A stretch of DNA of 64,000 nt from Phormidium willei BDU 130791 (lineage in GTDB: Bacteria > Cyanobacteriota > Cyanobacteriia > Cyanobacteriales > Geitlerinemataceae), in the NCBI GenBank assembly GCA_001637315.1, contig LSZA01000002.1, forward strand, positions 1 through 64,000. Reading direction: 5' to 3'. A program made the position numbers and the translations under genes. The notes beneath the pieces were generated by a model. It had not been told where the DNA came from and made no database searches. It saw only the letters and a program-made list of their open reading frames with translations. How positions within the stretch are numbered: the stretch's first letter is position 1; each line of letters begins with the position of its first letter. Positions 11,228-32,926 of the stretch are shown here, piece after piece.

Positions 11228-11346
11228 GATTTGATTGAAAGTAGATTCAACAAAAAACTTTGATCTAATACAAAGTATGCAAAAAATTTCTATCATAATA
11301 TTCTGAAGAATAAAAAGTTCCACGATTTTGTTAACAAAATTACTGT

Positions 11347-12180: not shown

Positions 12181-12604
12181 TCTTAGTCTTAATGAAGCCA
12201 GACCCGAAGATCGGGTTCATCTACTGATTTGGGACAGTCCCCAATCTAGCGAACTCCAGGACTTAGCCTTCCGCCATAATGCTGAGCGAGTCGACTACCG
12301 TCACCATCTTCTACAACGACATCCCCCCAACCAGCGTTTTTTAGTGCTGCACCATCACCTCGACCGAGAACTCGCCGCTCTCAAAACCCTTTGTCAGCAG
12401 GCCAGCAAACCTATCATCCTCCTCGAAGGATTTGACTGCTTCATCACCTATCTCCTCAGCCGTCCCAAAAGTCCGATTTCCCAACTCTGGACGCATCTCG
12501 ACCAAACTCGCAAACTCGAATCCCGCCTTTGGATTCTCCTGCCTCCCGCCTTAGTTCCCCCAACCTGGGATGACCAGCGTCAACGCCGCGTGACCGTCAG
12601 TTAA
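12164..12604 (+). CDS. Small unknown protein of the BREX-like operon
   Basis: 146 residues that I do not recognise. There is no Walker A motif, so it is not an ordinary BrxF ATPase, although the half KPIILLEGFDCFITYLL ... LWTHLDQTRKLESRLWILLPP resembles the Walker B and sensor half of a P-loop or PglZ-associated protein. It starts inside the DUF4007 gene (17-base overlap) and is followed after 32 bases by the 1555-aa ATPase. The strong coupling means that it is part of the system. BrxB-type function (partner of PglZ) or a degenerate P-loop adaptor are possibilities that I cannot decide between. Confidence 0.6.
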   Translation: MTAIANLSLNEARPEDRVHLLIWDSPQSSELQDLAFRHNAERVDYRHHLLQRHPPNQRFLVLHHHLDRELAALKTLCQQASKPIILLEGFDCFITYLLSRPKSPISQLWTHLDQTRKLESRLWILLPPALVPPTWDDQRQRRVTVS

Positions 12605-12636
12605 AGTTTCTCCGTTCCTCACCCACCCAGAAGCCG

Positions 12637-15600: not shown

Positions 15601-17304
15601 GGGAGTTCCGATATTACCAAAACTGAAGCTGAGCAGGTGAAACGCGATCGCAAACCGGTTGCAGAGCAGGTTGAGGGAGTCAACGTCTGGTTTGCTCCCA
15701 TCGCGGAGGTGGACTCTTTCGGAGAGTCGATGTCCCTCGAACAGCTTATTAAATGTTATCCCCAGGTCAACGTATCTCCTCCCGCCATTCGTCTCGATCG
15801 CATTTCAGTCAGTCCCTCTCCCAAACAACGGGAGTTATATGAGCAGGTCAAACAGAGAGTTCAAAGCCAACTGGACGAGCAAATTCTCAGCTTTAGCGAG
15901 GAAGCCGATCGCCTCAACCGTGAGGAAGCCTGTGACGCCTATCAGACAAGACTCGCAAGTTTACAAGACCAACTGGCGACGATTCCCGATTTAGAACGAT
16001 TCGGCGAAACCCTGAACTATGCTAGTCAACGAGTTGAATCCCTGCGATCGCAACTCCAGACTCGCCAACAGGTGGCGGACATCCTCCAGCAAATCAACAA
16101 CCAGTTCGCCAAGTTGAGCGAAACCTCCAGTCAAGAGGATTACGATGAGGTTCAAAGCGCGATCACCTCTCTCCAGGAGCAGGCTCCCCCGAGTCAAGAG
16201 ATAAGCCAACGTGTGGCTGAGATAGATCAGACCCTTGAACAGTCTCGCTCCCAATTGCTGCAACAACTCCAGGACTGGGAACAATGGGAACAAGAGGACA
16301 CCCAACCCAAAACCCGTCAGCAAATCCTGGAGATGAGCAAGGCGATCGCACGGGAAGAAAGTCGGTTCACAGACCCCGACTCCAAAACTCGCTTGCAGCA
16401 ATTACAGCAAAAACTCGATCGCAAACTCCTAGACGCTGAAAGCCAAGAAACCTCCCAACAACAACAGGCTGACGTCGAAGCGGCTCGGCGACAACAGATT
16501 CAGCAATTGTCTCCCTCCCCCAATCTCCCCCTAGCCGAGTGTGAATCTCGACTCCAACAACTCCAAGAACTGCGATCGCAACTTCAGGACAACTCCCTAG
16601 AACCCGATTTCAACCGCGTTCAGGAGCAACTTGACAGCCAAATCCAAGACTATCGCCAACAACTGAACCAGATTAGTGATCGCCTCGATAGTCTCACCAC
16701 CCGCTCAGAGTTCAACCAAGTCAAATCCAACTACGACAAACTAGAAGTATTACTCCAACACTCCAGCCAGTGGGACCCCTACCAACAACAGCTCCCCCGG
16801 TTTGAGAGCCTACAACAAGACATTGAGACCATCGAAGCCTTTGAAGCCGACAAACGGCGATCGCGCTCCAGCCAAGACCTCAACCCCCTGAGCGATCGCC
16901 TCCAGCAGCTCCCCCAACAGCTACAAAACCCCCATCGCTTCCAACCCCAACTTCAGCAATGGACAGACGACCTCAACCAACAACGCCAAGCCTATCAACA
17001 GCAAGCTCAAGACTGGCTCAATGACCTACAACAGCAATTTCAGGAGGTTTACCAAACCCCCGACAACTCGGAAAAACTGGATATCGTCACCCAGGTTCGC
17101 GATCGCCTACAACAAGAACGCTCCCAGCATGACCCCAACCTAACCCCCAGCCATCACAGCACCCTCACCCAACTCGAACGGGAATGTCAGCGGGAACAAG
17201 AGAAAGACACCGCCAATCAAATCAAAGTCCTGTTCCAACAACTCCCCCGCGTCCAACGTCAAACCCTCTACGAAGAGCTAAACGCCTATCTCTCCCATGA
17301 CTGA
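12637..17304 (+). CDS. brxC: BrxC/PglY-like giant ATPase
   Basis: 1555 residues. The N-terminal P-loop is Y-GKGKS at residues 76-81 within VVQQYGKGKSHFAVALA, and the Walker B is LILFDELNYYL with Asp267-Glu268. This N-terminal ATPase in a very large protein, directly upstream of pglZ, is the BrxC/PglY arrangement of BREX systems. From about residue 1080 to the end the protein is Gln/Leu/Arg-rich coiled coil (repeated LQQL, QQLQ units), which suggests oligomerisation or a long scaffold. The first ATPase of the island (4542) has the same N-terminal P-loop plan but a different body. It overlaps pglZ by eight bases. The coding strand turns markedly C-rich toward the 3' end. Confidence 0.78.
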   Translation: MLLNQLVRVNEKANISNSVNFGMMDNPEQNHALCEGFVFNYNPEKPNTSTVGILDRLRLSYHSQSTPNIHLVVQQYGKGKSHFAVALANFFSQPAESPEVNGILEQVRVATSGQNDSLVEGLRAFKENRRYLTVCLSGDHGGDLRQHFLKQLLTKLDRERITDSIAHHICREPLDYLQQLSEENRRQADEYLHQQGYPDGDLNTMIHLLQDGNTSIIPAVKALSGHLVGYPIDFQTHIDIEVILKDLIEGLCSGESPQFQGILILFDELNYYLKAWANNSAMAGGTAIQNITNICETYRHKLALLSFAQVGLTKASGISGSERESYLKIASRLEPADSTYYPESSLELVINNLLEQQVNTEEWKGFFEHWGDTLLGEARQAFNTYIPIYRERGWSFDDFFKHLGLGSFPLHPLTGYLLSKLDFAQVQDRTAIQFVKGYVREFIEAHPVEQDGLLSYVYPIDLVDTFLDNLSDAQYYNQFIKARNLVIHSENPDELSVLKALFLYFTSGDKLTKSDRHPHEDLLSELSGLPKSRVREALKQLEARDQIYYRADSKLYSFFSGSTTPGELRKKLEEAVQRQPDSIKDVLVHCRQNVSRYLKSSSMTATQFVSENGLVGDDWTFEYQIYDSDEFHRILRSQRWSPGGSAKGVVGFVLAATLEDLQEMRQQATPKLQNSRLENRLVVAVPKTTTEELNHALKLQKALRQLSDGEKTLYGNTFTQLAKQLNDQIEGETERLLTDCSYHNPVADQLSPQDQNRLQSLVSALLSQTYPQVASVGNVDKLRSQHSTGRKIVRVIAEQLFQNKFTPSNLPPDRFYQPTIDNVFCKVWGIFRIERQKYQVYSPQNKRVKAAWDEINNATDISHCPSKTVALKQLWETLSAPPYGYNELTFTVLLCSWLAYHRTEVVLKGTAGIPKRKSESFPVVSQPLTDWGSSNLFEKIDDFINVWIVKQTAQLIRRQRLAPPELPDSSPIPYDEACAYLKQVEEFLGSSDITKTEAEQVKRDRKPVAEQVEGVNVWFAPIAEVDSFGESMSLEQLIKCYPQVNVSPPAIRLDRISVSPSPKQRELYEQVKQRVQSQLDEQILSFSEEADRLNREEACDAYQTRLASLQDQLATIPDLERFGETLNYASQRVESLRSQLQTRQQVADILQQINNQFAKLSETSSQEDYDEVQSAITSLQEQAPPSQEISQRVAEIDQTLEQSRSQLLQQLQDWEQWEQEDTQPKTRQQILEMSKAIAREESRFTDPDSKTRLQQLQQKLDRKLLDAESQETSQQQQADVEAARRQQIQQLSPSPNLPLAECESRLQQLQELRSQLQDNSLEPDFNRVQEQLDSQIQDYRQQLNQISDRLDSLTTRSEFNQVKSNYDKLEVLLQHSSQWDPYQQQLPRFESLQQDIETIEAFEADKRRSRSSQDLNPLSDRLQQLPQQLQNPHRFQPQLQQWTDDLNQQRQAYQQQAQDWLNDLQQQFQEVYQTPDNSEKLDIVTQVRDRLQQERSQHDPNLTPSHHSTLTQLERECQREQEKDTANQIKVLFQQLPRVQRQTLYEELNAYLSHD

Positions 17305-19489
17305 CGACCCTCGCCAACCCACCTATATCCTCGACCCCAGTGGACTCTATCCCGTTGGTGACGGCTACCACCTCGTCAGCACCGAAGTCGAATGGTTGCA
17401 ACAGGTGGGGATTAGCGGCGATCGCCTGTGGATTCGCGGAAAATTCCTCTGTGACTGGACCCAAACCTGGCTCAACGCCTGGAATCGCCAAGCCGAAAGT
17501 CAAGTCCTCCAATCTCCCCGCGATCGCCTCCAGACCCTCCTCACCCCCCTATCTATCCCCGAAGACTGGACCCAACAACACTGTCTGCACCTCGCCGCTC
17601 ATCTCAACCGCTATCCCAACAACCCCCTAGCCGCTGTTCTCGCAGAAGTTAGCCACAGTCACCCAGACTTCTGGTTAGCCAACCCCTCCCACGACCATCT
17701 CGCCACCTGGCTCAGCCTCAGCGTTCCCCCAGACTACGCCATCCTCGAAGAGGCTTGGCGATATCGTCACCGCTCCCATCCCCTGGGGGACTATTACCAA
17801 ACCCCCGACAAACTGCAACTACTGCGTCAGTGGCTGGGACTCCTCCCACCAGCCATTCCCGAACTGGGGTCTTATCCCGGAGACATTCCCCCAATCATCG
17901 CCGAAGAGTTCGATCGCCATTGGACCCAACAACTCCACCACAGCCAGGGAGCCATCCTCGACCAACTCTCCCCCTCCCAACAACCGGGATTCCCTCGCAT
18001 TGCAAAACTCTCCTATGGCCTAGCCGTCAAAGACCGTCATGGAGAATATCTCACAGCCGAACGCAACCAAAAACTCAAACCCCATCTCTCCCTAGACCAA
18101 TATCAGAAACTACAACGACCCACCCCCCCTCAACCCCTCCCCAAAAACGCCACCGCAGACCAAGCCTTAACCTGGGCCACTCAGCAGTATCTCCCCTTTC
18201 GCCGCTGGGAGACCACCGACAGTCAGACCATCCCCCAAGACCGCCTCAGCGATCGCCTAGCCATCAGCTTTGTCGATTGGATTCATCACCACTATCCCCA
18301 ACTCAAAACCATCCCCGCCAAAGACTCCCACCTCAACTACAAAGCCACCCAAGTCGTTCAAGACCTCTGCAAAACCCATCCCGTCTTATGGGTGGTCGTC
18401 GATGGACTGGGTTGGTTGGACCAACAAGCCTTAATCGAATATCTCCAAAACAAAGACCTAGCCGTCGAGGAACTTCAACCCCGATTCAGCCTCCTCCCCA
18501 CCACCACCGAATTCGCCAAATGGGGACTCTACGCACAACAAACCCCCCGGGCCGACGTTTGGGAGAATAATATGAACAAAGCGTTCGCCAAAGTCGGACT
18601 CGGGAAACGCTACACCGACTCCCAAGACTCCCAACTCAAACAAGACATCCAAGGCGATCGTCACCGCCTCTACTGCTGGGACACCACCCAACTCGACAAA
18701 CTCTATCACGAAAAAAAAGACTGGGAACTCCTCTATTACACCGACCGACCTCGGGTTCTACAAGGAATTTGCGATCGCATCGACTTCTATCTCAACAAAC
18801 ACCCCGATCGCGATCGGCTCAAAATCGTCATCTCCAGCGACCACGGCCAACTTCTCGGACAGTCCAGCCAAGGAGTCATCTGTCCCCCCAACCTCACTCC
18901 CCAGGGACGAACCGCCAAAGGAGTCACCGACAATCCTAACTTTGTCGTCTTACATCGCCATGACTTCGACCTCCCCGAAGACCTAAGCATCGTTAAAGAC
19001 GCTTCCACCCTCAGCAGCTTCAGCTACAGCCAAGACCAAACCGTCATCGGCTCCCACGGTGGACTCTTTCCCGAAGAAGTCGTCATTGGCTACGCTGTTC
19101 TCAGTCGCCAAGTTCAGCGTTCCCCCATCCGGCTCCACTGTAGCGGCTCAGGAGAAGCCAACAAAAGCGGACAACTGCAACTGAGCATCCACAATCCCAA
19201 CCCCGTTCCCCTCACAGACCTAATTCTCACCATCAGCCAACTCGGGGAGTTCCAAACCGGACAACCCCTGAAGCAAACCATTCCCCCCAACAGCCATCAA
19301 CAGCTATCCCTTCCTATCTCCACCTGTCCCCAGCTTCCCCCCAACTCCAGCCAATCCCTCCCCCTCTCGGGAACCCTAACCTTTCAGTATGCTGGAGTTG
19401 AACCCGGAACCGCCGACCTCAACCCAGAGGCGACCCTAGAGATTAAACAACTGTTTAGCAGTAACCTGAACCTGGATGAATTTTTCTAA
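17297..19489 (+). CDS. pglZ: PglZ-domain protein
   Basis: 730 residues. The PglZ (alkaline-phosphatase superfamily) core is visible: VVVDGLGWLD around residues 366-375 with the metal-binding Asp369, SSDHG with Asp515-His516, and a later SHGGLFPEEVVIG near 585, the usual last metal-site His. The N-terminal ~350 residues are helical and Trp-rich without an assigned domain; the last ~130 residues look like an immunoglobulin-like beta sandwich (NPNPVPLTDLILTI, LPLSGTLTFQY). PglZ is the one component shared by all BREX types and is probably a phosphohydrolase or nuclease. It overlaps both brxC (8 bases) and brxL (14 bases). Confidence 0.9.
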   Translation: MTDDPRQPTYILDPSGLYPVGDGYHLVSTEVEWLQQVGISGDRLWIRGKFLCDWTQTWLNAWNRQAESQVLQSPRDRLQTLLTPLSIPEDWTQQHCLHLAAHLNRYPNNPLAAVLAEVSHSHPDFWLANPSHDHLATWLSLSVPPDYAILEEAWRYRHRSHPLGDYYQTPDKLQLLRQWLGLLPPAIPELGSYPGDIPPIIAEEFDRHWTQQLHHSQGAILDQLSPSQQPGFPRIAKLSYGLAVKDRHGEYLTAERNQKLKPHLSLDQYQKLQRPTPPQPLPKNATADQALTWATQQYLPFRRWETTDSQTIPQDRLSDRLAISFVDWIHHHYPQLKTIPAKDSHLNYKATQVVQDLCKTHPVLWVVVDGLGWLDQQALIEYLQNKDLAVEELQPRFSLLPTTTEFAKWGLYAQQTPRADVWENNMNKAFAKVGLGKRYTDSQDSQLKQDIQGDRHRLYCWDTTQLDKLYHEKKDWELLYYTDRPRVLQGICDRIDFYLNKHPDRDRLKIVISSDHGQLLGQSSQGVICPPNLTPQGRTAKGVTDNPNFVVLHRHDFDLPEDLSIVKDASTLSSFSYSQDQTVIGSHGGLFPEEVVIGYAVLSRQVQRSPIRLHCSGSGEANKSGQLQLSIHNPNPVPLTDLILTISQLGEFQTGQPLKQTIPPNSHQQLSLPISTCPQLPPNSSQSLPLSGTLTFQYAGVEPGTADLNPEATLEIKQLFSSNLNLDEFF

Positions 19490-20924
19490 CCTGAACGACT
19501 ATCCCAATGCACAAATCCGCGACGTATTCGGACCCCTCTGTATCGACAAACAGCGGCTCCCCTCCAGTGGACTCACCGCTGCGGGAATCCCCAGCTTTGT
19601 CGCCGAATGGCTCCTAGACAAAATCGTACCTGGTTCCGGTCCCCTAACTCCCGAAGAACTGAGTCAACTGAATGGATTTGTCGCCAAAGCCTTTCCCCGC
19701 AAAGACGACAAAAACGAAATTATGTTCAACCTCAGTCAAGGGAGAAGCCACAAACTCATCGCCTTAATGCAAGTTCGGGTGAAACTGCAACGAGATGGAA
19801 GTCTCGACCCCGACCCCGTCGCCAGCATTCCGGTCCTCAACCTAGAAAACTGTCCCATTCCTCTCGACATCATCGAACGCAATAAAATGTTGCTGAGAAA
19901 CGGGGTTTGGGGAAAAATCACCCTGGCGGGTCAGCTAGATCACCCTGTAGAAGTTATTGATTTTGAACCCTTCCAATGTTCCAGCGTTGACCTAGACCTT
20001 TACGCCAACTGTCGCGCCAAGTTTACGATACTGCAATGGCGAGACTTAATGCTCTGTTCCATGGGGTCAAACCCCGAACATCCCGGCTACACCGATGAGG
20101 CAAAAACCTGGATGTTGGCTCGTTTACTGCCCTTAGTTGAACCCAACTATCATATTATGGAACTGGCTCCCAAGGGAACGGGAAAGAGTTTTATTTTTGA
20201 GAATATCAACAGTAAAGTCGCCTTAGTCAGTGGTGGAAAAGTCACCCCAGCACAACTGCTCATTAACGGACGAACCAAGGAAGTGGGACTGTTGGGACGA
20301 CATGAGGTGGTTGTTCTTGATGAAGTCCAAAGCCTAACCTTTGATAATCCCGCCGAGGTAATTGGTCCCCTCAAGAACTATCTCGCCAATGGTCGCTATA
20401 ATCGCTCAGGATTTGCCGAAATTGCCAGTGATTGTTCTTTGGTGATGTTAGCCAATATCCAACTCAATGAGTTCTTACGTCCCCGCAATGAGAATAACCT
20501 AATCGGTGACTTGCCTGAGTTTTTATCAGAAACAGCTTTCTTAGATCGCATTGCCGGAATTATCCCCGGTTGGGAAATTCCCAAGTTCAAACAAGATATG
20601 ATTGCCTCTCAGGTGGGATTAAAGATGGACTTTTTTGGCGAGGCACTTCTGTCATTACGCTATGACAATCGCTTTTATGCCTATGCCAAACACTACACCC
20701 AGTTCAACCAAACCACAAACATTCGCGACCAAAATGCCATCTGTAAATCAGCAGCGGGATTTCTCAAAATCCTCTATCCCCATCTATCTCTAACGGTCAT
20801 GGATTATGAACGGGATTGTTTGAAACCCGCTCTTAAACTACGTCAGTTTATTCGCAACTCACTCTATTATTTAGATGATGAGTTTCGGGGATTTGGCGAA
20901 GTGCTTGAAGCTGAGGTAAAATAG
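19476..20924 (+). CDS. brxL: BrxL-like AAA+ protein lacking the Lon protease domain
   Basis: 482 residues matching the COG4930/BrxL family over its N-terminal and ATPase parts: AEWLLDKIVPG near the start, DEAKTWMLARLLPLVEPNY, Walker A KGTGKS (Gly234-Ser238), Walker B VVVLDEVQSL (Asp282-Glu283), then PGWEIPKF and GFLKILYPH, all landmarks of BrxL. Type 1 BrxL proteins are roughly 650-700 residues and carry a C-terminal Lon-like domain with the Ser-Lys dyad; here the protein stops soon after the AAA+ region, with no room for it. BrxL is a ring ATPase that binds DNA and is needed for phage exclusion in several BREX types. Last large gene of the operon (14-base overlap with pglZ). Confidence 0.87.
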   Translation: MNFSNLNDYPNAQIRDVFGPLCIDKQRLPSSGLTAAGIPSFVAEWLLDKIVPGSGPLTPEELSQLNGFVAKAFPRKDDKNEIMFNLSQGRSHKLIALMQVRVKLQRDGSLDPDPVASIPVLNLENCPIPLDIIERNKMLLRNGVWGKITLAGQLDHPVEVIDFEPFQCSSVDLDLYANCRAKFTILQWRDLMLCSMGSNPEHPGYTDEAKTWMLARLLPLVEPNYHIMELAPKGTGKSFIFENINSKVALVSGGKVTPAQLLINGRTKEVGLLGRHEVVVLDEVQSLTFDNPAEVIGPLKNYLANGRYNRSGFAEIASDCSLVMLANIQLNEFLRPRNENNLIGDLPEFLSETAFLDRIAGIIPGWEIPKFKQDMIASQVGLKMDFFGEALLSLRYDNRFYAYAKHYTQFNQTTNIRDQNAICKSAAGFLKILYPHLSLTVMDYERDCLKPALKLRQFIRNSLYYLDDEFRGFGEVLEAEVK

Positions 20925-20970
20925 AAAAACATCCGTCTTTCACCTAATTCATCGCTTCAAACAATGCGCT

Positions 20971-21126
20971 ATGGTTAAAGAAATCAAAAACCCAATCGAT
21001 AAAGATAAATTCAAGATATCTCCAGACATCTCTTTACTATCTTTAATCAAAAGTTTTTCCAAGATTGAGGATGAGTTTCCCGATGTCGATGAGAATCTGC
21101 AACCTTTAGATGATGTTGAAATTTAG
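20971..21126 (+). CDS. 51-aa acidic hypothetical protein
   Basis: A short ORF with an ATG start 46 bases after brxL: basic N terminus (MVKEIKNPIDKDKFK), a hydrophobic patch (DISLLSLIKSF) and an acidic C terminus (DEFPDVDENLQPLDDVEI). The acidic, proline-containing tail resembles tails of small antitoxins. The position suggests an accessory of the defence operon or half of a decayed toxin-antitoxin pair; no toxin follows. It may not be translated. Confidence 0.4.
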   Translation: MVKEIKNPIDKDKFKISPDISLLSLIKSFSKIEDEFPDVDENLQPLDDVEI

Positions 21127-21135
21127 CAGAGGTAG

Positions 21136-21201
21136 GGTGTGTTCCGGCTGCGTTCAATTTTTGATATTGAGCAACAAGATTTAAGCTAGCCGGAACGCAC
21201 C
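21136..21201. repeat. Long-loop inverted repeat at the island's right side
   Basis: ggtgtgttccggct (21136-21149) and agccggaacgcacc (21188-21201) form a 14-bp inverted repeat with one mismatch, separated by 38 bases of AT-rich sequence. It follows the 51-aa ORF and precedes the convergent nucleotidyltransferase gene. It could act as a bidirectional terminator (without a T-run) or be a small miniature-element remnant. Confidence 0.6.
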
Positions 21202-21212
21202 GAATTCGGGGA

Positions 21213-21503
21213 TTAGATGGCACGAATCGCCTCCTTCAATACCGAATCACGAACATAAGTCCGCAGTGAATTAGGTGTTCCCACATCAACCGAACAGCCA
21301 AAAAGCTCCTCTAAAAACGACTCCAGGCGCAGCAAGGTAAATAACCCCACGGGATGATGAAACTCAACCAAAATATCGACATCACTCTCCGCCGTCGCCT
21401 CGTCTCGCGCCACAGAACCAAAGAGAAACAAGGCTTTCACACTAAACTCCTCCAGGCGATCGCGATGACACTGAACTAACGCCAGAACCTGTTGTTTATC
21501 CAT
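21213..21503 (-). CDS. MNT-type nucleotidyltransferase (MntA-like antitoxin)
   Basis: 96 residues with the minimal nucleotidyltransferase signature: FLFGSVARDEATAESDVDILVEF gives the GS motif and the D-x-D metal site. The C-terminal part (LLRLESFLEELFGCSVDVGT) fits the MntA fold. MntA proteins AMPylate the HEPN toxin HepT encoded next to them, but no HEPN gene lies on either side here, so this is an orphan. It is on the minus strand and diverges from the cysteine desulfurase (60 bases apart), interrupting the otherwise co-directional island. Confidence 0.85.
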   Translation of the reverse strand: MDKQQVLALVQCHRDRLEEFSVKALFLFGSVARDEATAESDVDILVEFHHPVGLFTLLRLESFLEELFGCSVDVGTPNSLRTYVRDSVLKEAIRAI

Positions 21504-21562
21504 GATCTGACCTGGCTTTCGAGAATGATTAATCCCTACCTAGTCTAGCCTACCCTCTGCCG

Positions 21563-22708
21563 ATGCTTCCCATCTACCTCGACTACCACGCTACCACCCC
21601 CGTCGATCCGCGCGTCATCGACGTGATGACCGACACCCTCACCCACAACTTCGGGAACGCCAGTAGCATCGACCACCCCTACGGCGATCGCGCGGCCGCA
21701 CAAGTCAAAACCGCCAAACAGCATCTAGCCACCCTCATCGGCGCATCTCCCCGGGATATCCTCTTCACCTCCGGCGCAACGGAAAGCATCAACCTCGCCA
21801 TTCAGGGATGTTTGCGGGACACCCCCCTCCAGATCCTCCTCAACCCCCTCGAACATAAAGCCGTTCTCGATACCTGCGAGGCGATCGCCCAACGGGGACA
21901 GGCCCAACTCCACTATCTCACCCCCAGCGCCACCGGACAACTCGACCTAGAGGAGATTGACCGCTACTGTCGCCAGGGAATCGACCTGCTGTGCGTCATG
22001 GCCGCCAACAACGAAATCGGCACCCTCTATCCCGTCGAGGCGATCGCCAAAATCGCCCAAACTCACCAAGTCCCCTATCTCTGCGACGGCTCCCAAGCCG
22101 TTGGAAAACTCCCCTTCCAATTTCGCGACTGGGGACTCACCTTTCTGGCTCTCTCCGGTCATAAATTCTACGCACCCCAAGGCTGTGGCGCGTTAGTCGT
22201 GCGTCCCCAAACCCCCCTGACTCCCCTCCTCTACGGCGGCGGCCAGCAACGGGGACAACGACCGGGAACCCTGAATCTACCGGGGATTGTCGCCTTAGGA
22301 GAAGCGGCCCGCCTACGGACCCTAGAAATGGAGACGGACGAATCGCGCATTGCACGTCAACGCGATCGCCTCCAGTCCATCCTCCAAGCCAACATCCCCC
22401 AACTTCAAATTAACGGCGACCTCGACCATCGCCTGGCCGGAAACCTGCATATCTCCATTCCTGGGATTCCCAACAGTGCCATTATCGCCCGAGTGCGCGA
22501 TCGCCTAGCCATCTCCACCGGGTCCGCCTGCACTTCCGGCGTAGAAACCCCCTCCCATGTGCTGCGAGCGATCGGTCTTTCTGACTCCGCCATTGAAGGT
22601 TCCCTACGCATCGGCTTAGGGAAATTCACCCGTGATGCAGAGTTAGACGAGGCGGTGACCCTTCTCAGCCAGACTGTGGGGGCGATCGCCTGCCTAATGT
22701 CATCATAG
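21563..22708 (+). CDS. sspA: Cysteine desulfurase (DndA/SspA/NifS-type)
   Basis: 381 residues of the class V aminotransferase fold. The PLP lysine is Lys201 in SGHKFYAPQG; the persulfide-forming cysteine is Cys323 in STGSACTSG; the start YLDYHATTPVD and the FTSGATESINLAI segment are typical. The enzyme moves sulfur from L-cysteine to an acceptor. A housekeeping Fe-S role is possible, but the location about 600 bases after a defence operon, with a DndC/SspD-like acceptor in the same island, makes a sulfur-donor role in DNA phosphorothioation the better reading. The symbol sspA is therefore contextual. The coding strand is C-rich, like that of the BREX-like block. Confidence 0.8.
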   Translation: MLPIYLDYHATTPVDPRVIDVMTDTLTHNFGNASSIDHPYGDRAAAQVKTAKQHLATLIGASPRDILFTSGATESINLAIQGCLRDTPLQILLNPLEHKAVLDTCEAIAQRGQAQLHYLTPSATGQLDLEEIDRYCRQGIDLLCVMAANNEIGTLYPVEAIAKIAQTHQVPYLCDGSQAVGKLPFQFRDWGLTFLALSGHKFYAPQGCGALVVRPQTPLTPLLYGGGQQRGQRPGTLNLPGIVALGEAARLRTLEMETDESRIARQRDRLQSILQANIPQLQINGDLDHRLAGNLHISIPGIPNSAIIARVRDRLAISTGSACTSGVETPSHVLRAIGLSDSAIEGSLRIGLGKFTRDAELDEAVTLLSQTVGAIACLMSS

Positions 22709-22830: not shown

Positions 22831-23256
22831 ATGGTTTCCGTGTCTGCAAAAGACCGTTTTCACGATGTTGTTAAAATAGCACTCATAAAAGAGCAGTGGG
22901 TCATTACCCAAGACCCTTTGGCTTTCAAATATGGAAAGGTTGACTTTCAAGTTGATTTGGGTGCAGAAAAATTACTAGCTGCCGAACGAGAAAATTAAAA
23001 AATAGCCGTTGAAATTAAGAGTTTCTTAAATCCTTCTGCAATCACTGATTTTTATGCAGCATTAGGTCAGTTTTTGAGCTATCGTTTAGCGCTAGAAAGC
23101 CTCGATCCAGAACGAACTCTCTATTTAGCAGTTCCCTTAGAAAGTTATCAAACTTTTTTTCAACTGGAGTTCACTAAAACCGCAATTCAAAAATACAAAG
23201 TTCTGTTAATCGTTTACGATCCAATGAACGAGGTCATCACAAAATGGATAAACTAA
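22831..23256 (+). pseudogene. xisH: xisH-like gene with in-frame stop
   Basis: The reading frame from ATG 22831 translates to an XisH-family protein (start VSAKDRFHDVVKIALIKEQW, then FKYGKVDFQVDLGAEKLLAA), but a TAA at 22996-22998 interrupts it where family members have one residue before KIAVEIKSF. After the stop the frame stays open with the rest of the family sequence (DFYAALGQFLSYRLALE, ERTLYLAVPLESY, to ITKWIN) and ends at 23256. XisH has a PD-(D/E)XK-like fold (the VEIKSF motif) and is the partner of XisI; the pair was named after control of fdxN element excision but is widespread. One nonsense change makes this a recent pseudogene, a sequencing error, or a site of readthrough. Confidence 0.85.
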
Positions 23257-23585
23257 ACCAATATCGAGAAGCCATCCAAAGCCTTCTCACCCATTACGCC
23301 AACCAAGACTATTATCCATCTAATCCTGACATCGAAACACAACTTCTATTTGATACCCAGCGCGATCATTATCAATGGATGGATGTAGGATGGCAAGAAC
23401 TCACTCGGATTTATCGAACCATTATTCATTTGGATATTAAAGATGGAAAGATTTGGCTACAACAAAACCTGACAGAGTTGAATCCCGCCGAAGACTTAGT
23501 TGCAATGGGAATTGCACGAGAGGATATCGTCTTGGGGTTGCATCCCCCCTACAAGCGGCCTTATACCGACTATGGTGTCGCTTAG
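23244..23585 (+). CDS. xisI: XisI-family protein
   Basis: 113 residues with the XisI landmarks: MDKLNQYREAIQ at the start, the LLFDTQRDHYQWMDVGW segment, HLDIKDGKIWLQQNLTE, and the C-terminal VLGLHPPYKRPYTDYGVA. It overlaps the end of the xisH frame by 13 bases, the usual arrangement. The partner xisH carries an in-frame stop, so this intact copy may be functionless, or may neutralise an XisH from elsewhere if the pair behaves as toxin and antitoxin. Confidence 0.92.
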   Translation: MDKLNQYREAIQSLLTHYANQDYYPSNPDIETQLLFDTQRDHYQWMDVGWQELTRIYRTIIHLDIKDGKIWLQQNLTELNPAEDLVAMGIAREDIVLGLHPPYKRPYTDYGVA

Positions 23586-26250: not shown

Positions 26251-29200
26251 TTAATCATTCCCCAAAATCAAATTCAAGAGATTCAGTTCATTAGAGGTAA
26301 TCAGATAGCGATCCGTAAATAACCTCGATCGCATCTGTTTCAGACTGTAACTGCGGAAAATCAGAAACGGGAACTCTCGATAGCGATCGCCAATCGGTAA
26401 CAGATTATCAGTGGGATACAATTGGCGTAAATACTCCCTCAGCAGCGAGCGAAACTCCTGTGTTTCAGGTTCAACGACTCCCGACTGGAAATACTCAGCC
26501 ATGATATCTCCCAAGAGAAACGCAAACAGGGGAATCGCATAATACTGATCCGACCAACTCTGACCCTGTTGAAGTCGCTGAGTATAATCATGAGGGGATT
26601 GTAACTCACGGATTAACTGAATTCCCCATTCCATTAACTGCTGAAGATTCGGAGAATACTCGGAACTCTTCTGAATCGCAATCATCTGCTTGAGTAACTC
26701 TGACGAGACGGAGGTTTGAATCGTCCTGAGTCCCATCGTATAGGTTTCATGTAATCGCTGTTCACTGAGCTTGTTACTCATGGGAACCAGCAGTAAACTC
26801 CCGCAAATATGACCTAATTCTAATTTGGGAAAGGTCAATAATCCAGCGAGAGGATTGCAACAGTTGGCGAACTCTTGATTGAGGTGCGATCGCATCCTTA
26901 AATAAGACACCCCCTCCTGCTCTTTCCGGTCTTCCTCTGTTACAATAAACTCACCCTGACTCAGCAGCGATCGCAACCGTTTCGCCAACTCTTTAACTGT
27001 TATATTACGGCGATCGCGGCGATATTCTTTCTCCAACTTATCAATCAACGCCGCCAATTGACCACTTAAGCTTTGACCCGACATCGAGACCGACTTTCCA
27101 CCAATGGGAATCACCATAAACTGCTCTCGTCCAATTTGGCCCGAGCCAGCAATTCGGGTCATAATCGCCGTCTTGAGAATCACCAGCAGCGTCAACAGAC
27201 TCAAGAGACTTTCTTGAATCGCCAAATCTCGATGCTCTTCATCATAATACACCGCGCGATCGCCCAAATAAAAGGTCACCGCCTTCTCACTCTCATCCAA
27301 ACTCCGCCACTCACCCTTCTCCCAAAACTGACCGCGACCCCGATACATCACCTGGATGATTTCCATTAAATTTTGTTCCACCTGAAAGCGGGGAACATCC
27401 AACAAAATATGTTGAGCTTTAGGAAACGACAATCCCCGACTCGCTGAGGAGGTCATAAACACCACCGAAACTCGATTCTGAAACTCCTGAATTGTCCCTC
27501 GCTCCTCATCACTTAAATCCGCATGAACCTCTAAATAATCTTTGTTCTTTTCAAACGTCTCCTCAGCCTTAATGGAGTCAATCAAATCTTGCAATCGTTG
27601 CTTATCTTGGATATAAACTAAAATCTGCATTTCAGGATAATCCTGACGCAGTTGATTGAGATCTGTTAATATCTGCGACTGAACCTGTTTCGAGAGTTTT
27701 CCCATTTTCTCAGAGGTCAACTCTGGCTTAAACCCAACCGACTCCACGAACACTTTATAGGTTAACTTAAGCCGATTAGCGGGATAGGAATTGGCCTTAA
27801 TTACCTGTCCTTGCAGATTTTTCAACGGACCTTTTTTAAACACCAGGGATTCCACTTGAATCTCCCCCGGCCGCTGCTCCCGCAGATGACGCACAAAAAT
27901 CTTATCCGGTTCCGGTTCGTTATCACTTAAATGCTGCTGAATCACTCCCCTCTCCACAATCGACGCATCAGCGACAATCAGCTTGAGATTAAACCCCGAG
28001 TGAGGATGGTTGAGTTGATACTTACGGATAATCTCCGTCATAGCGTGTAAAAACTCCACCCCACTGGGGTCACCCGTGACCTCATCAATCATAATAAATA
28101 GATGTTTGAGGCGACGGGACATCCCTTGCATTCGAGAAAAATCAACTTTTCGGCTATCTCGATAATAAAAATCCTCAAATATCTTCTCAAAATGTCTCAC
28201 CGTACGATTGTTATTTTCGGTCATCCGCAAGGCTTGAATGCAAGCCGTGGCGATAATTGCATTGGAAAGAGGTTCCTGAATCGCCGCATGAATCCCTCGA
28301 CAAAGGGTTGACAAAACCCCTGGTTTATGATTTTTTGAGGGACGTAGATGGCGGTCAGTCTCTCGATGCAGGAATCGCTGGGACGAGTTTCGAGGGGGAG
28401 GACTTTCATTAAAAGGAATAAAGCGGATTCCTCGACAAGAAAACTCACCCGAATGCTGTCCCGAGAGGCTGTTCACCACTTTCTCGTTAGGGTAGCGATC
28501 CAATAACGCCGAATTAGTGGTTAACGCCAACAGACGCGGATCACATAACTGCTGAGTTTGGGAATCTTTGAACTTCTCAATAATATCTAAGTTGACTTGT
28601 TTGCGAGGACTGACATAGAAAAAGAGAAACCCCTCATCAATATGAGACTTCAGAAACTCAACAATCGCCGTGGTTTTCCCAATTCCCGGATTTCCCGTGA
28701 GAAATAGCAACGGTTTATCTGAAGTTAAGCCAGCTTGAACCGCCTCCGCATGTGGCGATCGCAACGCCAAAGTTGACGCAAAACCCTCAATCACCTCCTG
28801 GTGAGGGGGAATTACGTTAATCTCATCCCCTTGAATCTCGGATAATCTCTTGACAAACTCCCGTCCCCCCTGAAAACTACGAGACGCATTGCGACGAATC
28901 ACCTGTAACAGCTCCCGTCTCGCATCAGTGATCTCAACATCCCGAGGTTCATTGTGATAGATATCCTGACAGGTAGTTAAAAATTTGAGATGTTGCGGAT
29001 GTTGCGGATTGAGGGACATAATACTGAGGGAGCGATCGCTATATCCCACCACATTGATCAAGAAATCCTGTTTCCCGACTTTCTCCCATAACCCCAGTTG
29101 CGGCTCTTGCAAAAATTGATAGAAGCTATAGCCATAACTTCCTGCTTGAATCAATTTGCTAACTTCCTTATCCTCTCGCTTAAACGCCGTAAAATATCGC

Positions 29201-29916
29201 CGCAGATCTTTCGAGAACTCCCAATCGAGATTCTCGGGTTCCCCATTATCCAAACGCAGACTCGCAAACACACTCTTAGATTTCAGGTAACTGATCTCCC
29301 GTCGCAACAAACGGCGATGATGATTCAGAGTGGAATCCTGCAAATTTAGCAAATTCGCCGCCTCGCGAACGGAAAACACCGACAAATCCACCACCAACAG
29401 CCTCAACGTTCGTCGACGTCGCAGCAAAATCAGCGTATCGGCTCTCAGAAATCCCCCTTTATCACGATATCGCCGCAGATGGTCATATGAACAATCTGTA
29501 AAACTAAGTCCCAGTTGAGACAGCCAAGCCTTAATTTCCCGAGGTTCATCCTGATTTAAAGTTCCTAAGCTATTATTTCCCGTAAAACAACATTGATAAT
29601 AGAGAATTTCTCGATCAGCCGTCGCCTTTCCCAAAAATTCTAAGTATTCTCGAAAGAAGTTTAACCCAGACAGCCAGCCTTTTTGCAGGAGAAACAGTCC
29701 CCAAGTTTCCAGTCTTTCAATTTCACGAGCATCAATCAGATTGGATCTTTTGCAGAGGCTATCTAATATCTCGGAAAAAGCTAACTCTTGCAAATCTTGT
29801 TGATACCGATCGCCAAAATGATGAGTGAGATTTTCCTGTGCGATCGCCGTCAAAATCCCGACATTAAACCCCACCTCAAACACTCGTCCCAAATCTTCCG
29901 CAACCGTTGCAACCAT
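26251..29916 (-). CDS. Helicase-like P-loop protein of an unrecognised two-gene cassette
   Basis: 1221 residues. Walker A is TGNPGIGKTT with Lys414; Walker B is FIMIDEVTGD with Asp611-Glu612. Further on, VVFMTSSASRGLSFPKAQHI and QVMYRGRGQF (first Arg near 859) look like motifs V and VI of a superfamily 2 helicase, and LLDVPRF lies between them. The N-terminal 400 residues contain a possible helix-turn-helix (VREAANLLNLQDSTLNHHRRLL). No nuclease motif was identified. It is co-transcribed with the ~1000-aa gene upstream (4-base gap), with a good Shine-Dalgarno (aggaga) before ATG. I do not recognise the pair as a named system; the defence-island position and helicase-plus-large-partner plan suggest antiviral or plasmid-control activity, as inference only. 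Confidence 0.75.
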   Translation of the reverse strand: MVATVAEDLGRVFEVGFNVGILTAIAQENLTHHFGDRYQQDLQELAFSEILDSLCKRSNLIDAREIERLETWGLFLLQKGWLSGLNFFREYLEFLGKATADREILYYQCCFTGNNSLGTLNQDEPREIKAWLSQLGLSFTDCSYDHLRRYRDKGGFLRADTLILLRRRRTLRLLVVDLSVFSVREAANLLNLQDSTLNHHRRLLRREISYLKSKSVFASLRLDNGEPENLDWEFSKDLRRYFTAFKREDKEVSKLIQAGSYGYSFYQFLQEPQLGLWEKVGKQDFLINVVGYSDRSLSIMSLNPQHPQHLKFLTTCQDIYHNEPRDVEITDARRELLQVIRRNASRSFQGGREFVKRLSEIQGDEINVIPPHQEVIEGFASTLALRSPHAEAVQAGLTSDKPLLFLTGNPGIGKTTAIVEFLKSHIDEGFLFFYVSPRKQVNLDIIEKFKDSQTQQLCDPRLLALTTNSALLDRYPNEKVVNSLSGQHSGEFSCRGIRFIPFNESPPPRNSSQRFLHRETDRHLRPSKNHKPGVLSTLCRGIHAAIQEPLSNAIIATACIQALRMTENNNRTVRHFEKIFEDFYYRDSRKVDFSRMQGMSRRLKHLFIMIDEVTGDPSGVEFLHAMTEIIRKYQLNHPHSGFNLKLIVADASIVERGVIQQHLSDNEPEPDKIFVRHLREQRPGEIQVESLVFKKGPLKNLQGQVIKANSYPANRLKLTYKVFVESVGFKPELTSEKMGKLSKQVQSQILTDLNQLRQDYPEMQILVYIQDKQRLQDLIDSIKAEETFEKNKDYLEVHADLSDEERGTIQEFQNRVSVVFMTSSASRGLSFPKAQHILLDVPRFQVEQNLMEIIQVMYRGRGQFWEKGEWRSLDESEKAVTFYLGDRAVYYDEEHRDLAIQESLLSLLTLLVILKTAIMTRIAGSGQIGREQFMVIPIGGKSVSMSGQSLSGQLAALIDKLEKEYRRDRRNITVKELAKRLRSLLSQGEFIVTEEDRKEQEGVSYLRMRSHLNQEFANCCNPLAGLLTFPKLELGHICGSLLLVPMSNKLSEQRLHETYTMGLRTIQTSVSSELLKQMIAIQKSSEYSPNLQQLMEWGIQLIRELQSPHDYTQRLQQGQSWSDQYYAIPLFAFLLGDIMAEYFQSGVVEPETQEFRSLLREYLRQLYPTDNLLPIGDRYREFPFLIFRSYSLKQMRSRLFTDRYLITSNELNLLNLILGND

Positions 29917-29920
29917 AAGT

Positions 29921-32900
29921 TTAGTTCTCCTGACGCTCGTTAGACTGTGGATATAAAATAGAGTTCACCGCCGTTAAAAATGCCAAGCTATTAAAATAAG
30001 TTTTCCCATCAATGTGATAAAACAAAGCATTTTTACGCAACGCCTCATCTCCCATGATTTGTTGATACGGATCTAGCTTTAATTGTGGTTTATCCTGGTG
30101 GCGTTCCACGCGGAAAAAGTGAAATAAGGTTAAATAACGTAAAATATCCCTTTTCACTGGCCCCTCATAAATTAATCCCTGGCGAATATCTTGGTCATCG
30201 AGAATTTCTGGATAGACATTAATCAAAGTTGAGTAAGACATCACCCCATTATAAAACCGTCCCTCTTTTCCTACAGTCATTCCATTAAAGAGATTAAAGA
30301 AAACGACAATATGCTGACTCGGATCATTGAGGATATTCAGCAATTGTTGAGTATTATTGAGACGGTAAGAGTCTTCGTTCAACCGGCTAGATTTGAGGAC
30401 TGAATACTGATTCACGAACACGGGATATAACTGTAAATCCTCTAGTCCCTCAACTAAAAACTTGATGAGATTGGGAGACATGAAATAGAGATTTTTGTCT
30501 TCCTCAACCTGGGTTAAGTTGAGTCGATTCGTATAGGGTGCTTGAGCCAAATAGATAATATGGCGATATCCCGCTTGATGGAGTTGATGAATCAGATCAC
30601 TGAGAATTGAGGGATTGTTGTACACCTGGCGATCGCCATAATTCTCCGAAAAGGTTTTGAAGGGTTGAATTGTGATTTGTCCCTGATTATTATCGATGGC
30701 GATCGCCTCCCCAAACAGCGTCGAAATTCCCGGATATTGATGACGATTCCGTCGTACCCCGTCACTCTCCAAACTCGACACCACCAACAACGCCAACTTA
30801 TCCACTCCCTGAGATCCATCTTGAGGTTGGGGGAGATTAAATTCATAGGTTTGAGGTAACACCGAATACAACGACGCAAACGCATTTCGTATCTTATGAC
30901 TACTCCTAGTCTTAATCCGAATCCCTTGAGAATTTGACCAATATCGCTCACCCAGCAAATGAACCACCACCTTCGAGAGATTCGCCATAAACTTCTCCGA
31001 AGGTGACGGATGTTTTTCAGTTCCCTCATGGAACCGTAATAGAGGAATAAACAATCGCCGATCTTCTAAATCCAACGCATCTAAAATCACCCGCAAGCTG
31101 ATATACATCAACAACGACATGGTGAAGCGATAGAAAAATCCTTGACTTGAGTTACTCTGGCTCGGATCTAAATAGCGATTATTATACGCGATAACAACGA
31201 GCGGCGTCTCCCTTAAATTTGTTTGAGACGTTTGGCTACTTGTGGAAGATCGAGGAGTGACTAAAACTGGAAGTTGATAAATTGTATCGGTTTCCGCATC
31301 ATAACAATCAAAACTCTCAGTTCCTGGCTTAGAATAATAGCGAATATCCTCAAACTCAAAACAAACCGGAAGTTGACAAAACGTTTCATCTGAGCTAAAG
31401 TCCTCCTTGATGGTGATATAGCGCAGACATTCCCTAGGATTACGACCCACCACATCATCAAAGACATCTCCGTTACCTAAGGAATTAGGCGATTGTCTTA
31501 AAATACCTCGAACTACCCCAATTTTTTTCTGAAAAACTTGAGGCTTAAAAACACCTCGACGTTTTAATGTCGTTTCTAGCAAATGCTTGAGTCTTTGTAT
31601 TTTTGTCTGGACATTAAATGTTTTAAATCCCTTGATAAGTCCTCGAAAAATACCATCTTTTTGCTCTTGAGTTCCTTCCTTAAAAATAGGGAGAATATGC
31701 TGCTCAAAACCAGAAATAACATTATAGTCGAGTTCTGACGAAATTTCATATCCCTCAGCCATCGGATTACACCGCGATGCAAAGATAAAATAGTAAAGAA
31801 ACAAAATCCGCAGCATCTTACGCGCCACAATTTCTGGATTACTCTCCTCAACCTGTTGATTCCAATTTTTCGGATTTAAGATATTACAGTAATAGTCAAA
31901 CACAGGCTCTCCACCTCGTGCTTGGACTTCATTTCCAAACTTTAGCTTGAGTCCAAAGGTGAAAATCCGCTCACCATTGCTCTCATTGGTGGTTTCGCCG
32001 ATAATATCCGAGAGAATCGGGATAATCGGCAACGCATCTAACGACTCTGAGCGTGAAAACCAATCTTTATAATTTAACTCAACTCCGCGATAATTGACCG
32101 TGTAATGACCATAAGGCTCCTTGCTAATATAAGTTTCAATATCCCGTAAACGGCGAATTAAATCATCTAAATACACCACATCAGGATGAGTATCCCGATT
32201 TATTTGTTGACGGAGATACTCTAAATAGCAAATTTTTGCCTCTTTTTTTAGCTTTCCTAACGACTCACGATCCACCACTCGCTGCAAACGATAGAAATCC
32301 GAATTTGGCGAGTCTATCAATCGTTCCTGAACCGCATCTTGGGCATCTTCTAACTCTTCTTCATCTGTTAAAATATCCTCCAGATGACGATTTAAGCCAG
32401 CTTTCATTCGTTCTGAAAATTGGTTGACTTCACCCACCGTAATCATCACCTTGTGGAACTTAAGCAAAGAATCCCCACCCCGTCCTTCCGTTCGGGTTTC
32501 TAAATCCGCAATGGGAACAGCCGTGGAATCAGAGGCTTCACGCGCAAAACTGATGCGACTCCATGATTCTTCCTCAAGAGTGGTCAGTAAATCGTTGAGA
32601 TCAAACCCGGTTGTGTCGAGTTGCTGCTGTAACTGGCTGGCCACTTCCTGACGCACATTTTGAATCACGCCATTGAACCGTGGCTCAAAATCAGCCGTTA
32701 AACTTAACGTCGCCGAACGAGCCGAATAATCCGCCAAAATAGGATTTTGAATTCGCTGTTGTGCCACAATTTGGGCGATCGCATCTACATTCACCATCAA
32801 GCGATCGCGACCATTTGAACTGACCCTAAAGAGTTGGTTTTCTTGCAATTGCTGCCGGATCTGTGCCAGTAACTCCCCATAATCCAGCGAAAACGGCAAC

Positions 32901-32926
32901 CCCTCTCCCAACTCAAACGTATTCAT
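29921..32926 (-). CDS. ~1000-aa partner protein of unknown function
   Basis: About 1001 residues from ATG 32926 (start MNTFELGEGLPFSLDYGE); a GTG at 32941 would add five residues. No motif that I can name. The N-terminal 200 residues are helical and acidic; a middle part is Arg/Tyr-rich; the C-terminal third alternates strands and helices (KLALLVVSSLES, GYRHIIYLAQAPYTN, HIVVFFNLFNG), like an alpha/beta domain with an RNase H-, Piwi- or Rossmann-type order, but I see no convincing catalytic set. First gene of the cassette with the helicase-like protein and probably its obligatory partner. Its promoter lies in the 289 bases divergent from icd. Confidence 0.7.
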   Translation of the reverse strand: MNTFELGEGLPFSLDYGELLAQIRQQLQENQLFRVSSNGRDRLMVNVDAIAQIVAQQRIQNPILADYSARSATLSLTADFEPRFNGVIQNVRQEVASQLQQQLDTTGFDLNDLLTTLEEESWSRISFAREASDSTAVPIADLETRTEGRGGDSLLKFHKVMITVGEVNQFSERMKAGLNRHLEDILTDEEELEDAQDAVQERLIDSPNSDFYRLQRVVDRESLGKLKKEAKICYLEYLRQQINRDTHPDVVYLDDLIRRLRDIETYISKEPYGHYTVNYRGVELNYKDWFSRSESLDALPIIPILSDIIGETTNESNGERIFTFGLKLKFGNEVQARGGEPVFDYYCNILNPKNWNQQVEESNPEIVARKMLRILFLYYFIFASRCNPMAEGYEISSELDYNVISGFEQHILPIFKEGTQEQKDGIFRGLIKGFKTFNVQTKIQRLKHLLETTLKRRGVFKPQVFQKKIGVVRGILRQSPNSLGNGDVFDDVVGRNPRECLRYITIKEDFSSDETFCQLPVCFEFEDIRYYSKPGTESFDCYDAETDTIYQLPVLVTPRSSTSSQTSQTNLRETPLVVIAYNNRYLDPSQSNSSQGFFYRFTMSLLMYISLRVILDALDLEDRRLFIPLLRFHEGTEKHPSPSEKFMANLSKVVVHLLGERYWSNSQGIRIKTRSSHKIRNAFASLYSVLPQTYEFNLPQPQDGSQGVDKLALLVVSSLESDGVRRNRHQYPGISTLFGEAIAIDNNQGQITIQPFKTFSENYGDRQVYNNPSILSDLIHQLHQAGYRHIIYLAQAPYTNRLNLTQVEEDKNLYFMSPNLIKFLVEGLEDLQLYPVFVNQYSVLKSSRLNEDSYRLNNTQQLLNILNDPSQHIVVFFNLFNGMTVGKEGRFYNGVMSYSTLINVYPEILDDQDIRQGLIYEGPVKRDILRYLTLFHFFRVERHQDKPQLKLDPYQQIMGDEALRKNALFYHIDGKTYFNSLAFLTAVNSILYPQSNERQEN

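What the first reader, a model, noticed from the sequence alone, without database searches (positions are those of the whole stretch)
26251..32926. Unrecognised two-gene helicase cassette next to the defence island
A 1221-aa P-loop/SF2-helicase-like protein (GKTT with Lys414, Asp611-Glu612, a YRGRG motif near 859) is co-transcribed, 4 bases apart, with a ~1000-aa protein without recognisable domains. Two very large genes of this kind beside VapBC, XisHI and a BREX/Ssp island are typical of undescribed antiviral systems. The pair does not match DptFGH, DISARM, Zorya or Druantia as I know them.
Basis: partly seen in the sequence, partly recalled or inferred. Interest (0 to 1): 0.78.

Follow-up and report, generated by a model that had tools for sequence, protein, structure and literature searches.

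The report
Conserved nuclease-helicase gene pair
Two large neighbouring genes in a cyanobacterium, which nearly always occur together in distant bacteria, probably form an undescribed DNA-processing machine (a helicase with a nuclease-like front end plus a partner whose tail looks like a worn-out Argonaute/RNase H domain), most likely used against invading DNA, although no experiment has tested it here.

Summary
A 1221-aa SF2 helicase (26251-29916, -) lies 4 bases downstream of a ~1000-aa partner that matches no Pfam, PADLOC or NCBIfam model. They are a near-obligate pair: partner directly before helicase in 35 of 40 partner places read in cyanobacteria, 9 of 9 second-clade loci and 7 of 7 plasmid loci opened, some proteobacterial. 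Their divergences track each other (Mantel r 0.99, 43 loci). The helicase's first ~390 residues carry an invariant E-D-(D/E)xS-K-K-QxxxY pattern (44 of 44), like a RecB/Cas4-type PD-(D/E)xK nuclease with its lysine moved; no profile confirms it. The partner's last third probably has a catalytically dead RNase H-like fold, possibly MID-PIWI, but the models are poor (pLDDT 29-33) and profile comparison with Argonautes fails. Defence is plausible, not shown: at least 4 of 15 second-clade or plasmid loci lie beside known defence genes, but 22 of the 40 places are fixed housekeeping sites (purSQ, pheT, icd), and the Ssp/BREX-like island next door turns over independently. I read it as an unrecognised two-gene nuclease-helicase system, a new variant of a known kind.

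The parts
26251..29916 (-). SF2 helicase with N-terminal nuclease-like domain, 1221 aa, downstream gene of the pair
   Evidence: (Helicase_C E 3.3e-7)
28747..29916 (-). N-terminal domain (residues 1-390) with RecB/Cas4-like PD-(D/E)xK signature: E14, D160, (D/E)177-x-S179, K250, K254, Q257xxxY261
   Evidence: invariant in 44 of 44 relatives; not recognised by Pfam in 23 N-termini; family likeness is recalled knowledge
28669..28695 (-). Walker A / motif I GNPGIGKTT (K414)
28081..28086 (-). motif II D611-E612
   Evidence: invariant 44 of 44
27331..27354 (-). motif VI QVMYRGRG (residues 855-862)
   Evidence: Q855, Y858, R859, R861, G862 in 44 of 44, G860 in 40; Helicase_C match 758-859
29921..32926 (-). 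partner protein, 1001 aa from the conserved ATG (1006 aa from GTG 32941)
   Evidence: (no family)
30842..31219 (-). partner residues 575-700: possible MID-like region, Q672 (90% or more) and invariant G673
   Evidence: by-eye comparison with pAgo; inference
30467..30805 (-). partner residues 713-825: RNase H-like core, beta-beta-beta-alpha-beta, without the catalytic acids
   Evidence: low-confidence model; 22 displayed rows
30068..30121 (-). partner residues 941-958: invariant H941 ... L956-x-P958, at the place of the conserved H and P in PIWI C-termini
   Evidence: invariant columns, 46 sequences; likeness to PIWI by eye only

Best explanation
The two genes encode one machine. The partner (about 1000 aa) is the recognition and scaffold subunit, and its C-terminal third is probably a catalytically dead RNase H-like, possibly MID-PIWI, nucleic-acid-binding module. 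The helicase is the motor and effector: an SF2 translocase whose N-terminal PD-(D/E)xK-like domain cuts DNA once the partner has marked or opened a foreign or aberrant nucleic acid (for example an RNA-DNA hybrid or a replication intermediate of a plasmid or phage). Shown here: near-obligate pairing, tight co-divergence, helicase motifs, an invariant nuclease-like pattern, purifying selection with faster protein evolution than icd and the 595-aa neighbour, patchy distribution with decayed copies. Inferred: physical complex, nuclease activity, nucleic-acid binding by the partner, and a role against mobile DNA.
For: Pairing: partner in 43 of 386 and helicase in 53 of 373 cyanobacterial genomes, fragments included; adjacent in the same order in 35 of 40 partner places read, 9 of 9 second-clade loci and 7 of 7 plasmid records opened out of 11. 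Mantel r 0.992 over 43 loci and 0.967 over 30, 0 of 1000 permutations. E14, D160, (D/E)177, S179, K250, K254, Q257, Y261 in 44 of 44. C-terminal model: 8 of the top 50 Foldseek rows are Argonaute entries and nearly all others RNase H-like proteins by my recall; VIA-align best Z 6.7 to a chain of a SPARTA entry over 99 residues, RsAgo Z 6.3 over 101; for the separately folded full-length model the first row is an Argonaute MID-PIWI. Conjugative plasmids. Neighbouring DrmD, SngC, HmaC, HsdR in four loci and, on Acinetobacter plasmids, HNH and WYL genes or HipA, Fic, HigB and DUF4011 genes. dN/dS 0.20-0.27 for the pair against 0.05-0.07 for icd and the 595-aa neighbour.
Against: No Pfam nuclease family matches the N-terminal domain convincingly in 23 members, and the canonical K of (D/E)xK is an invariant S. 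The AlphaFold models are poor (mean pLDDT 28.6 and 33.3), no Foldseek hit reaches E 0.001, and VIA-align Z under 8 may only show a common arrangement. Profile comparison of the partner with pAgo and pPIWI-RE is no better than decoys, and one decoy scored higher, although the positive control was weak too. 22 of 40 partner places read are fixed housekeeping sites. In one genome (G131) partner and helicase lie on different contigs with other genes beside each. The cysteine desulfurase next door has a dN/dS as high as the pair's in one of two comparisons. No match in 50,697 phage records with one second-clade helicase as query.
Confidence: 0.5

Rival explanations
1. A chromosomal DNA-repair or genome-maintenance helicase pair, kept at fixed housekeeping sites and only occasionally mobilised onto plasmids.
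For: 13 loci downstream of purS-purQ-like genes, 7 near a pheT-like gene, own genus beside icd; purifying selection.
Against: Patchy: 43 of 386 genomes, with broken or fused copies (e.g. G051, G127, G199, G262, G308); carried on conjugative plasmids; several second-clade and plasmid copies lie among restriction and toxin genes; missing at the icd site in a same-genus genome.
Confidence: 0.22
2. An abortive-infection or genome-integrity sensor like Hachiman: the helicase senses aberrant DNA and the nuclease domain then degrades all DNA, with the partner holding it in check.
For: Nuclease-like and helicase modules in one polypeptide with a near-obligate second subunit; HamAB precedent (PMC12278908, abstract and outline seen).
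Against: No match to HamA or HamB models. In Hachiman the nuclease is the separate subunit; here the nuclease-like domain is fused to the helicase.
Confidence: 0.18
3. A selfish maintenance or anti-competitor function of conjugative plasmids that was captured by chromosomes.
For: All six cyanobacterial plasmids with both genes are typed conjugative.
Against: The copies with a shared place are chromosomal, beside housekeeping-like genes; no transfer genes are annotated near the pair in the three of these six plasmids opened.
Confidence: 0.1

Closest known systems
pPIWI-RE system (REase + DinG helicase + pPIWI-RE; PMC3702460, outline and section 6 read)
   Same: Combines a restriction-type nuclease, an SF2 helicase and a large protein that may end in a PIWI-like module; patchy distribution.
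   Different: Two genes, not three; nuclease-like domain fused to the helicase; helicase matches Helicase_C and no DinG-type Pfam family (PADLOC typeIV_DinG only at E 0.016 around the P-loop); partner has no RNaseH_pPIWI_RE match and no profile similarity; order is partner then helicase.
Catalytically inactive long-B and short pAgo systems (BPAN, SPARTA; PMC10620215, passages read)
   Same: A dead PIWI-like subunit paired with a separate effector gene would be the same logic; the best Argonaute rows are SPARTA and RsAgo entries.
   Different: No Pfam Piwi match in the window's genome; the effector here would be a helicase, a word that does not occur in that paper's main text.
Hachiman HamAB (PMC12278908, abstract and outline seen)
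   Same: Two-component nuclease plus SF2 helicase.
   Different: No HamA/HamB match; subunit layout differs.
RecB/AddB/Cas4 nucleases (PD-(D/E)xK with QxxxY; recalled)
   Same: Order E-D-(D/E)-QxxxY.
   Different: Canonical lysine replaced by invariant serine; no profile match.

Membership tests
SF2 helicase | Walker A, DE motif II, RGRG-type motif VI and a Helicase_C domain | tested here: met
pPIWI-RE system | RNaseH_pPIWI_RE (PF13032) domain | tested here: not met
   no Pfam match in the partner; none in the window's genome, while 21 of 100 genomes of the order match
pPIWI-RE system | DinG-type helicase | tested here: not met
   Helicase_C match, no DinG-type Pfam family; weak PADLOC typeIV_DinG row E 0.016 at residues 389-416 only; no invariant cysteine
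prokaryotic Argonaute | Piwi domain (PF02171) by sequence | tested here: not met
   partner has no Pfam match; no match in G000
prokaryotic Argonaute | MID-PIWI / RNase H-like fold | tested here: inconclusive
   low-confidence models, RNase H-like rows dominate; no profile support
prokaryotic Argonaute | binding of a small guide | not testable with these tools
   needs co-purified nucleic acid
PD-(D/E)xK nuclease | E, D, (D/E)xK, QxxxY in order | tested here: inconclusive
   all but the lysine invariant in 44 of 44; K is S, with invariant K250 and K254 further on; no convincing Pfam match in 23
Hachiman | match to HamA and HamB models | tested here: not met
DISARM, Druantia, Dpd, Zorya, BREX | a PADLOC model match of either protein | tested here: not met
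   no row for the partner; four for the helicase at E 0.0026-0.022 (PDC-S73, MkoA, typeIV_DinG, mad8), best stretches of 28-66 residues around the P-loop
anti-phage defence system | protection against phage or plasmid | not testable with these tools
   no experiment
anti-phage defence system | neighbourhood enriched in defence genes | tested here: inconclusive
   at least 4 of 15 second-clade/plasmid loci have strong hits; 18 first-clade loci: kinase models lead; control: cysteine desulfurase, RT and kinase models; only 25 of 90, 104 and 66 families were shown

The most novel reading that the evidence does not exclude
The partner is a new, catalytically dead PIWI-like family, unrecognisable by sequence from pAgo and pPIWI-RE, and with the nuclease-helicase it forms a two-gene guide- or hybrid-directed DNA restriction system that cyanobacteria also keep at fixed chromosomal sites outside defence islands.
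Probability: 0.35. Interest if true: 0.85.

Novelty: new variant of a known kind. Interest (0 to 1): 0.6.

Why it matters
A conserved pair of very large proteins with strictly invariant catalytic-looking residues, found from cyanobacteria to Acinetobacter plasmids, has no family in the Pfam, NCBIfam and PADLOC copies searched here (only its helicase core is recognised). If the partner is PIWI-like it would add a further PIWI branch with a nuclease-helicase as its direct partner. If it is not, it still gives a clean two-gene machine whose activity can be tested at once, and an example of a possible defence system that defence-island searches would miss in many of its hosts.

Tried and rejected
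Profile-profile tests of the partner against cyanobacterial pAgo (13 sequences, 26) and pPIWI-RE (20) alignments: probabilities 0.0-0.5%, within the range of decoys (reversed profile, windows of the helicase and of the partner itself); one decoy, the partner's first window, reached 2.3%. Positive control pPIWI-RE against pAgo: 31% full-length, 3% cropped. So no homology claim is made on sequence. My alignment of partner motifs with pAgo motifs is by eye.

AlphaFold of the whole partner failed (pLDDT 28.6); I put this down to depth, since only the window sequence and three close relatives were eligible. Its last 432 residues gave pLDDT 33.3. A family not listed by VIA-align is not excluded.

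PDB sequence profiles: nothing for the partner (one row, E 0.49); for the helicase Smubp-2, MSS116 and others at E 0.00087 or worse. Pfam on 23 helicase N-termini: scattered rows only, best E 2e-4 in one member to an unrelated thiol-protein family, TnsA C-terminal domain in 2 at E 0.1. Rfam around the pair: none at gathering score. Repeats: the GCGATCGC motif recurs (by recall the cyanobacterial HIP1 repeat); I saw no array in the 20 of 29 families shown. Viral contigs: one fragment (L136) from five answered scans. Phage records: none for one second-clade helicase query.

DISARM, Druantia, Zorya, Hachiman, BREX membership rejected on PADLOC. Third conserved gene: the 224- and 92-aa genes upstream in one family look like PurQ and PurS (recognised from sequence by me, no profile call), not system parts; HNH and WYL genes follow the pair on one Acinetobacter plasmid and are not listed after it on the other.

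Places left out of the count of 40: the window itself, G207 (pair split over two contigs), G305 (contig end) and G051 (decayed). Of the 92 neighbours in the second-clade/plasmid set I looked at 20 singly plus the first member.

Literature: search listings (12 of 43 shown; 11; 10 of 79; 2; 1; 6 of 14; 0) show no description of this pair in titles or abstract starts; two were too broad to inform. Read: PMC3702460 outline and section 6; PMC10620215 nine passages; PMC12278908 outline and abstract; PMC13092281 one passage. 'Not in print' is limited to these searches of an open-licence library.
Full report
What is there. The window holds two genes on the minus strand: a partner of 1001-1006 aa (29921-32926/32941) and, 4 bases further, a 1221-aa helicase (26251-29916). 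Pfam recognises Helicase_C (E 3.3e-7) and, below cut-off, P-loop families in the helicase and nothing in the partner; PADLOC and NCBIfam have no row for the partner and only weak ones for the helicase (best E 0.0026 and 0.009), mostly around the P-loop. The host is a cyanobacterium: its nearest named relatives are Phormidium and Geitlerinema contigs. The window's genome has one copy of the helicase.

The pair is real and nearly obligate. The partner was found in 43 of 386 cyanobacterial genomes and the helicase in 53 of 373, fragments included. I read the neighbourhoods of 40 partner places, leaving out the window, G207, G305 and G051, and 12 further regions. In 35 of the 40 the partner or its remains directly precede the helicase on the same strand (three of these copies are broken: L066, L077, L078). 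In two the order holds but about 2 and 7 kb of other sequence lie between (L052, L074), in one the two are fused in one frame by deletion (L079), one partner runs into its contig's end (L075), and in one genome (G131) partner and helicase lie on different contigs with other genes next to each (L065, L095). A second clade (helicase 26-29% identical) has the same layout in 9 of 9 loci; a first-clade profile recognises five of its nine partners, and the other four are L092, which is 79% identical to a recognised one (L088), and three that are 54-99% identical to L092. Of 11 plasmid records with a helicase match I opened seven; all have the pair, the partners of the proteobacterial ones being linked by tblastn. 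Outside cyanobacteria these are Cupriavidus, Acetobacter and two Acinetobacter plasmids. Distances of partner and helicase between loci correlate at r = 0.992 (43 loci) and 0.967 (30 loci of the first clade), never reached in 1000 permutations. Subunits of one complex would show this, though shared descent of neighbours alone also gives such a correlation.

Helicase anatomy. Motifs I, II, V and VI are invariant or nearly so in 44 aligned relatives. The N-terminal 390 residues have no convincing Pfam family (23 members scanned). Yet E14, D160, an acidic residue at 177 (32 D, 12 E), S179, K250, K254, Q257 and Y261 are present in 44 of 44. E ... D ... (D/E)x? ... QxxxY is the order of the RecB/AddB/Cas4 branch of PD-(D/E)xK nucleases (family knowledge, recalled); the lysine of (D/E)xK is a serine here, and I infer that K250 or K254 replaces it. 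This is an inference from a pattern, not a profile match.

Partner anatomy. No sequence method names it. Two AlphaFold runs with only four eligible sequences gave poor models (mean pLDDT 28.6 and 33.3), but the stretch 715-800 came out as beta-beta-beta-alpha-beta in the second and in part in the first. Foldseek with the C-terminal model gives no row at E 0.001 or better. Of its top 50 rows, 8 are Argonaute entries, 21 retroviral or foamy integrases, 7 Hermes transposase, and the rest include spliceosomal Prp8, RNase H, eRF1 and mitoribosomal chains; by my recall nearly all contain an RNase H-like fold. VIA-align gives best Z 6.7 (99 residues, 3.8 A) for a chain of a SPARTA entry (I did not verify which subunit) and 6.3 (101 residues, 2.9 A) for RsAgo; 10 of its 50 rows come from Argonaute entries, none reaches Z 8, integrases and kinases score close behind, and the tool warns that such Z can reflect a common arrangement. 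The full-length model, folded separately but from nearly the same sequences, has an Argonaute MID-PIWI as first row at a non-significant E 0.078, with 7 rows of 50 from Argonaute or PIWI entries. By eye the order of partner motifs follows pAgo: Q672-G673, the strand at 715, the strand at 792, H941, LDP at 956-958. Against this, profile-profile comparison with pAgo and pPIWI-RE is at decoy level. In the 22 rows displayed there is no acidic residue at the end of the first or fourth strand, although D727, a few residues after the first, is conserved in 90% or more; I therefore do not expect RNase H-type catalysis. I conclude RNase H-like fold probable, PIWI possible.

Context. SspB-E, a second SspB-like gene, a BrxC-like 1555-aa protein, PglZ, BrxL and a cysteine desulfurase lie at 3619-22708. 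In two genomes of the same genus the pair keeps its place beside icd and near the 595-aa gene; of the six island proteins I queried, one (G066) shows only SspB and SspC and the other (G002) only PglZ and BrxL in the 20 kb read; a third same-genus genome (G298) has icd without the pair. So the island and the pair are separate units. In 13 loci of one family the pair lies downstream of purS-purQ-like genes (12 immediately) and in 7 loci of another within four genes of a pheT-like gene (names by my reading of the sequences). With the two icd loci that makes 22 of the 40 places. In ten regions of related genomes without a pair at that site the slot after purQ holds other genes.

Defence neighbours. 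I scanned 92 neighbours of 15 second-clade and plasmid loci, 123 neighbours of 18 first-clade loci and 99 control genes from 20 arbitrary regions with PADLOC (25 of 90, 104 and 66 families shown, so these are not complete counts). The first set holds strong matches to DrmD (L038), SngC/BrxHI (L090), HmaC (L080) and a type I restriction subunit (L084). The second is led by kinase models, the control by cysteine desulfurase, reverse transcriptase and kinase models. On Acinetobacter plasmids the pair is followed by HNH and WYL genes in one case and lies among HipA, Fic, HigB and a DUF4011 gene in the other. The enrichment is suggestive for part of the family and not established for the rest.

Evolution. 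Against two same-genus copies dN/dS is 0.22-0.27 for the partner and 0.20-0.22 for the helicase, 0.05-0.06 for icd, 0.06-0.07 for the 595-aa gene, but 0.16-0.23 for the cysteine desulfurase. Several copies are broken. Both fit an accessory, fast-changing function such as defence; neither proves it.

Mechanism. My best model: the partner recognises or holds a nucleic-acid feature of incoming DNA, and the helicase translocates and cuts with its N-terminal domain. The pPIWI-RE proposal (PMC3702460, outline and section 6 read) has the same three ingredients in three genes; long-B pAgos (PMC10620215, passages read) show that a dead PIWI with a separate effector can defend. Membership in either is not met on sequence. 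Hachiman (PMC12278908, abstract and outline seen) is the closest working two-component nuclease-helicase.

Verdict. Observation confirmed; interpretation partly supported; a conserved, unannotated nuclease-helicase pair, probably defensive, with an open and testable question about a new PIWI-like family.

Noticed in passing
window 3619-22708: SspB-C-D-E followed head to tail by a second SspB-like gene, a 1555-aa BrxC/SspC-like protein, PglZ and BrxL, then a SspA/DndA-like cysteine desulfurase (a label that control genes also get): a merged Ssp and BREX-like island whose halves vary between same-genus genomes.
   Followed up: partly
window 22831-23585: XisI is intact (23244-23585) but the gene before it, XisH by position, is split into two short frames, 22831-22998 and 23074-23256.
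   Followed up: partly
window 50087-53779: 1230-aa protein with a C-terminal match to DUF4263/SduA-type nuclease models.
   Followed up: no
L079 4787-8137 (G262): One open frame joins the partner's first half to the helicase's second half, a natural in-frame deletion.
   Followed up: no
L060 6722-10606 (G121): Helicase copy of 1294 aa with an insertion of about 50 residues between query residues 677 and 684.
   Followed up: no
L037 7600-11711 (Acetobacter persici plasmid): Helicase split into two overlapping genes, the second (348 aa) matching the helicase.
   Followed up: no
L065 and L095 (G131): The one genome read where partner and helicase sit on different contigs, each with other genes beside it.
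   Followed up: no
L136 3-737: Fragment of a second-clade partner at the edge of a viral contig that carries terminase- and portal-like frames by my reading.
   Followed up: no
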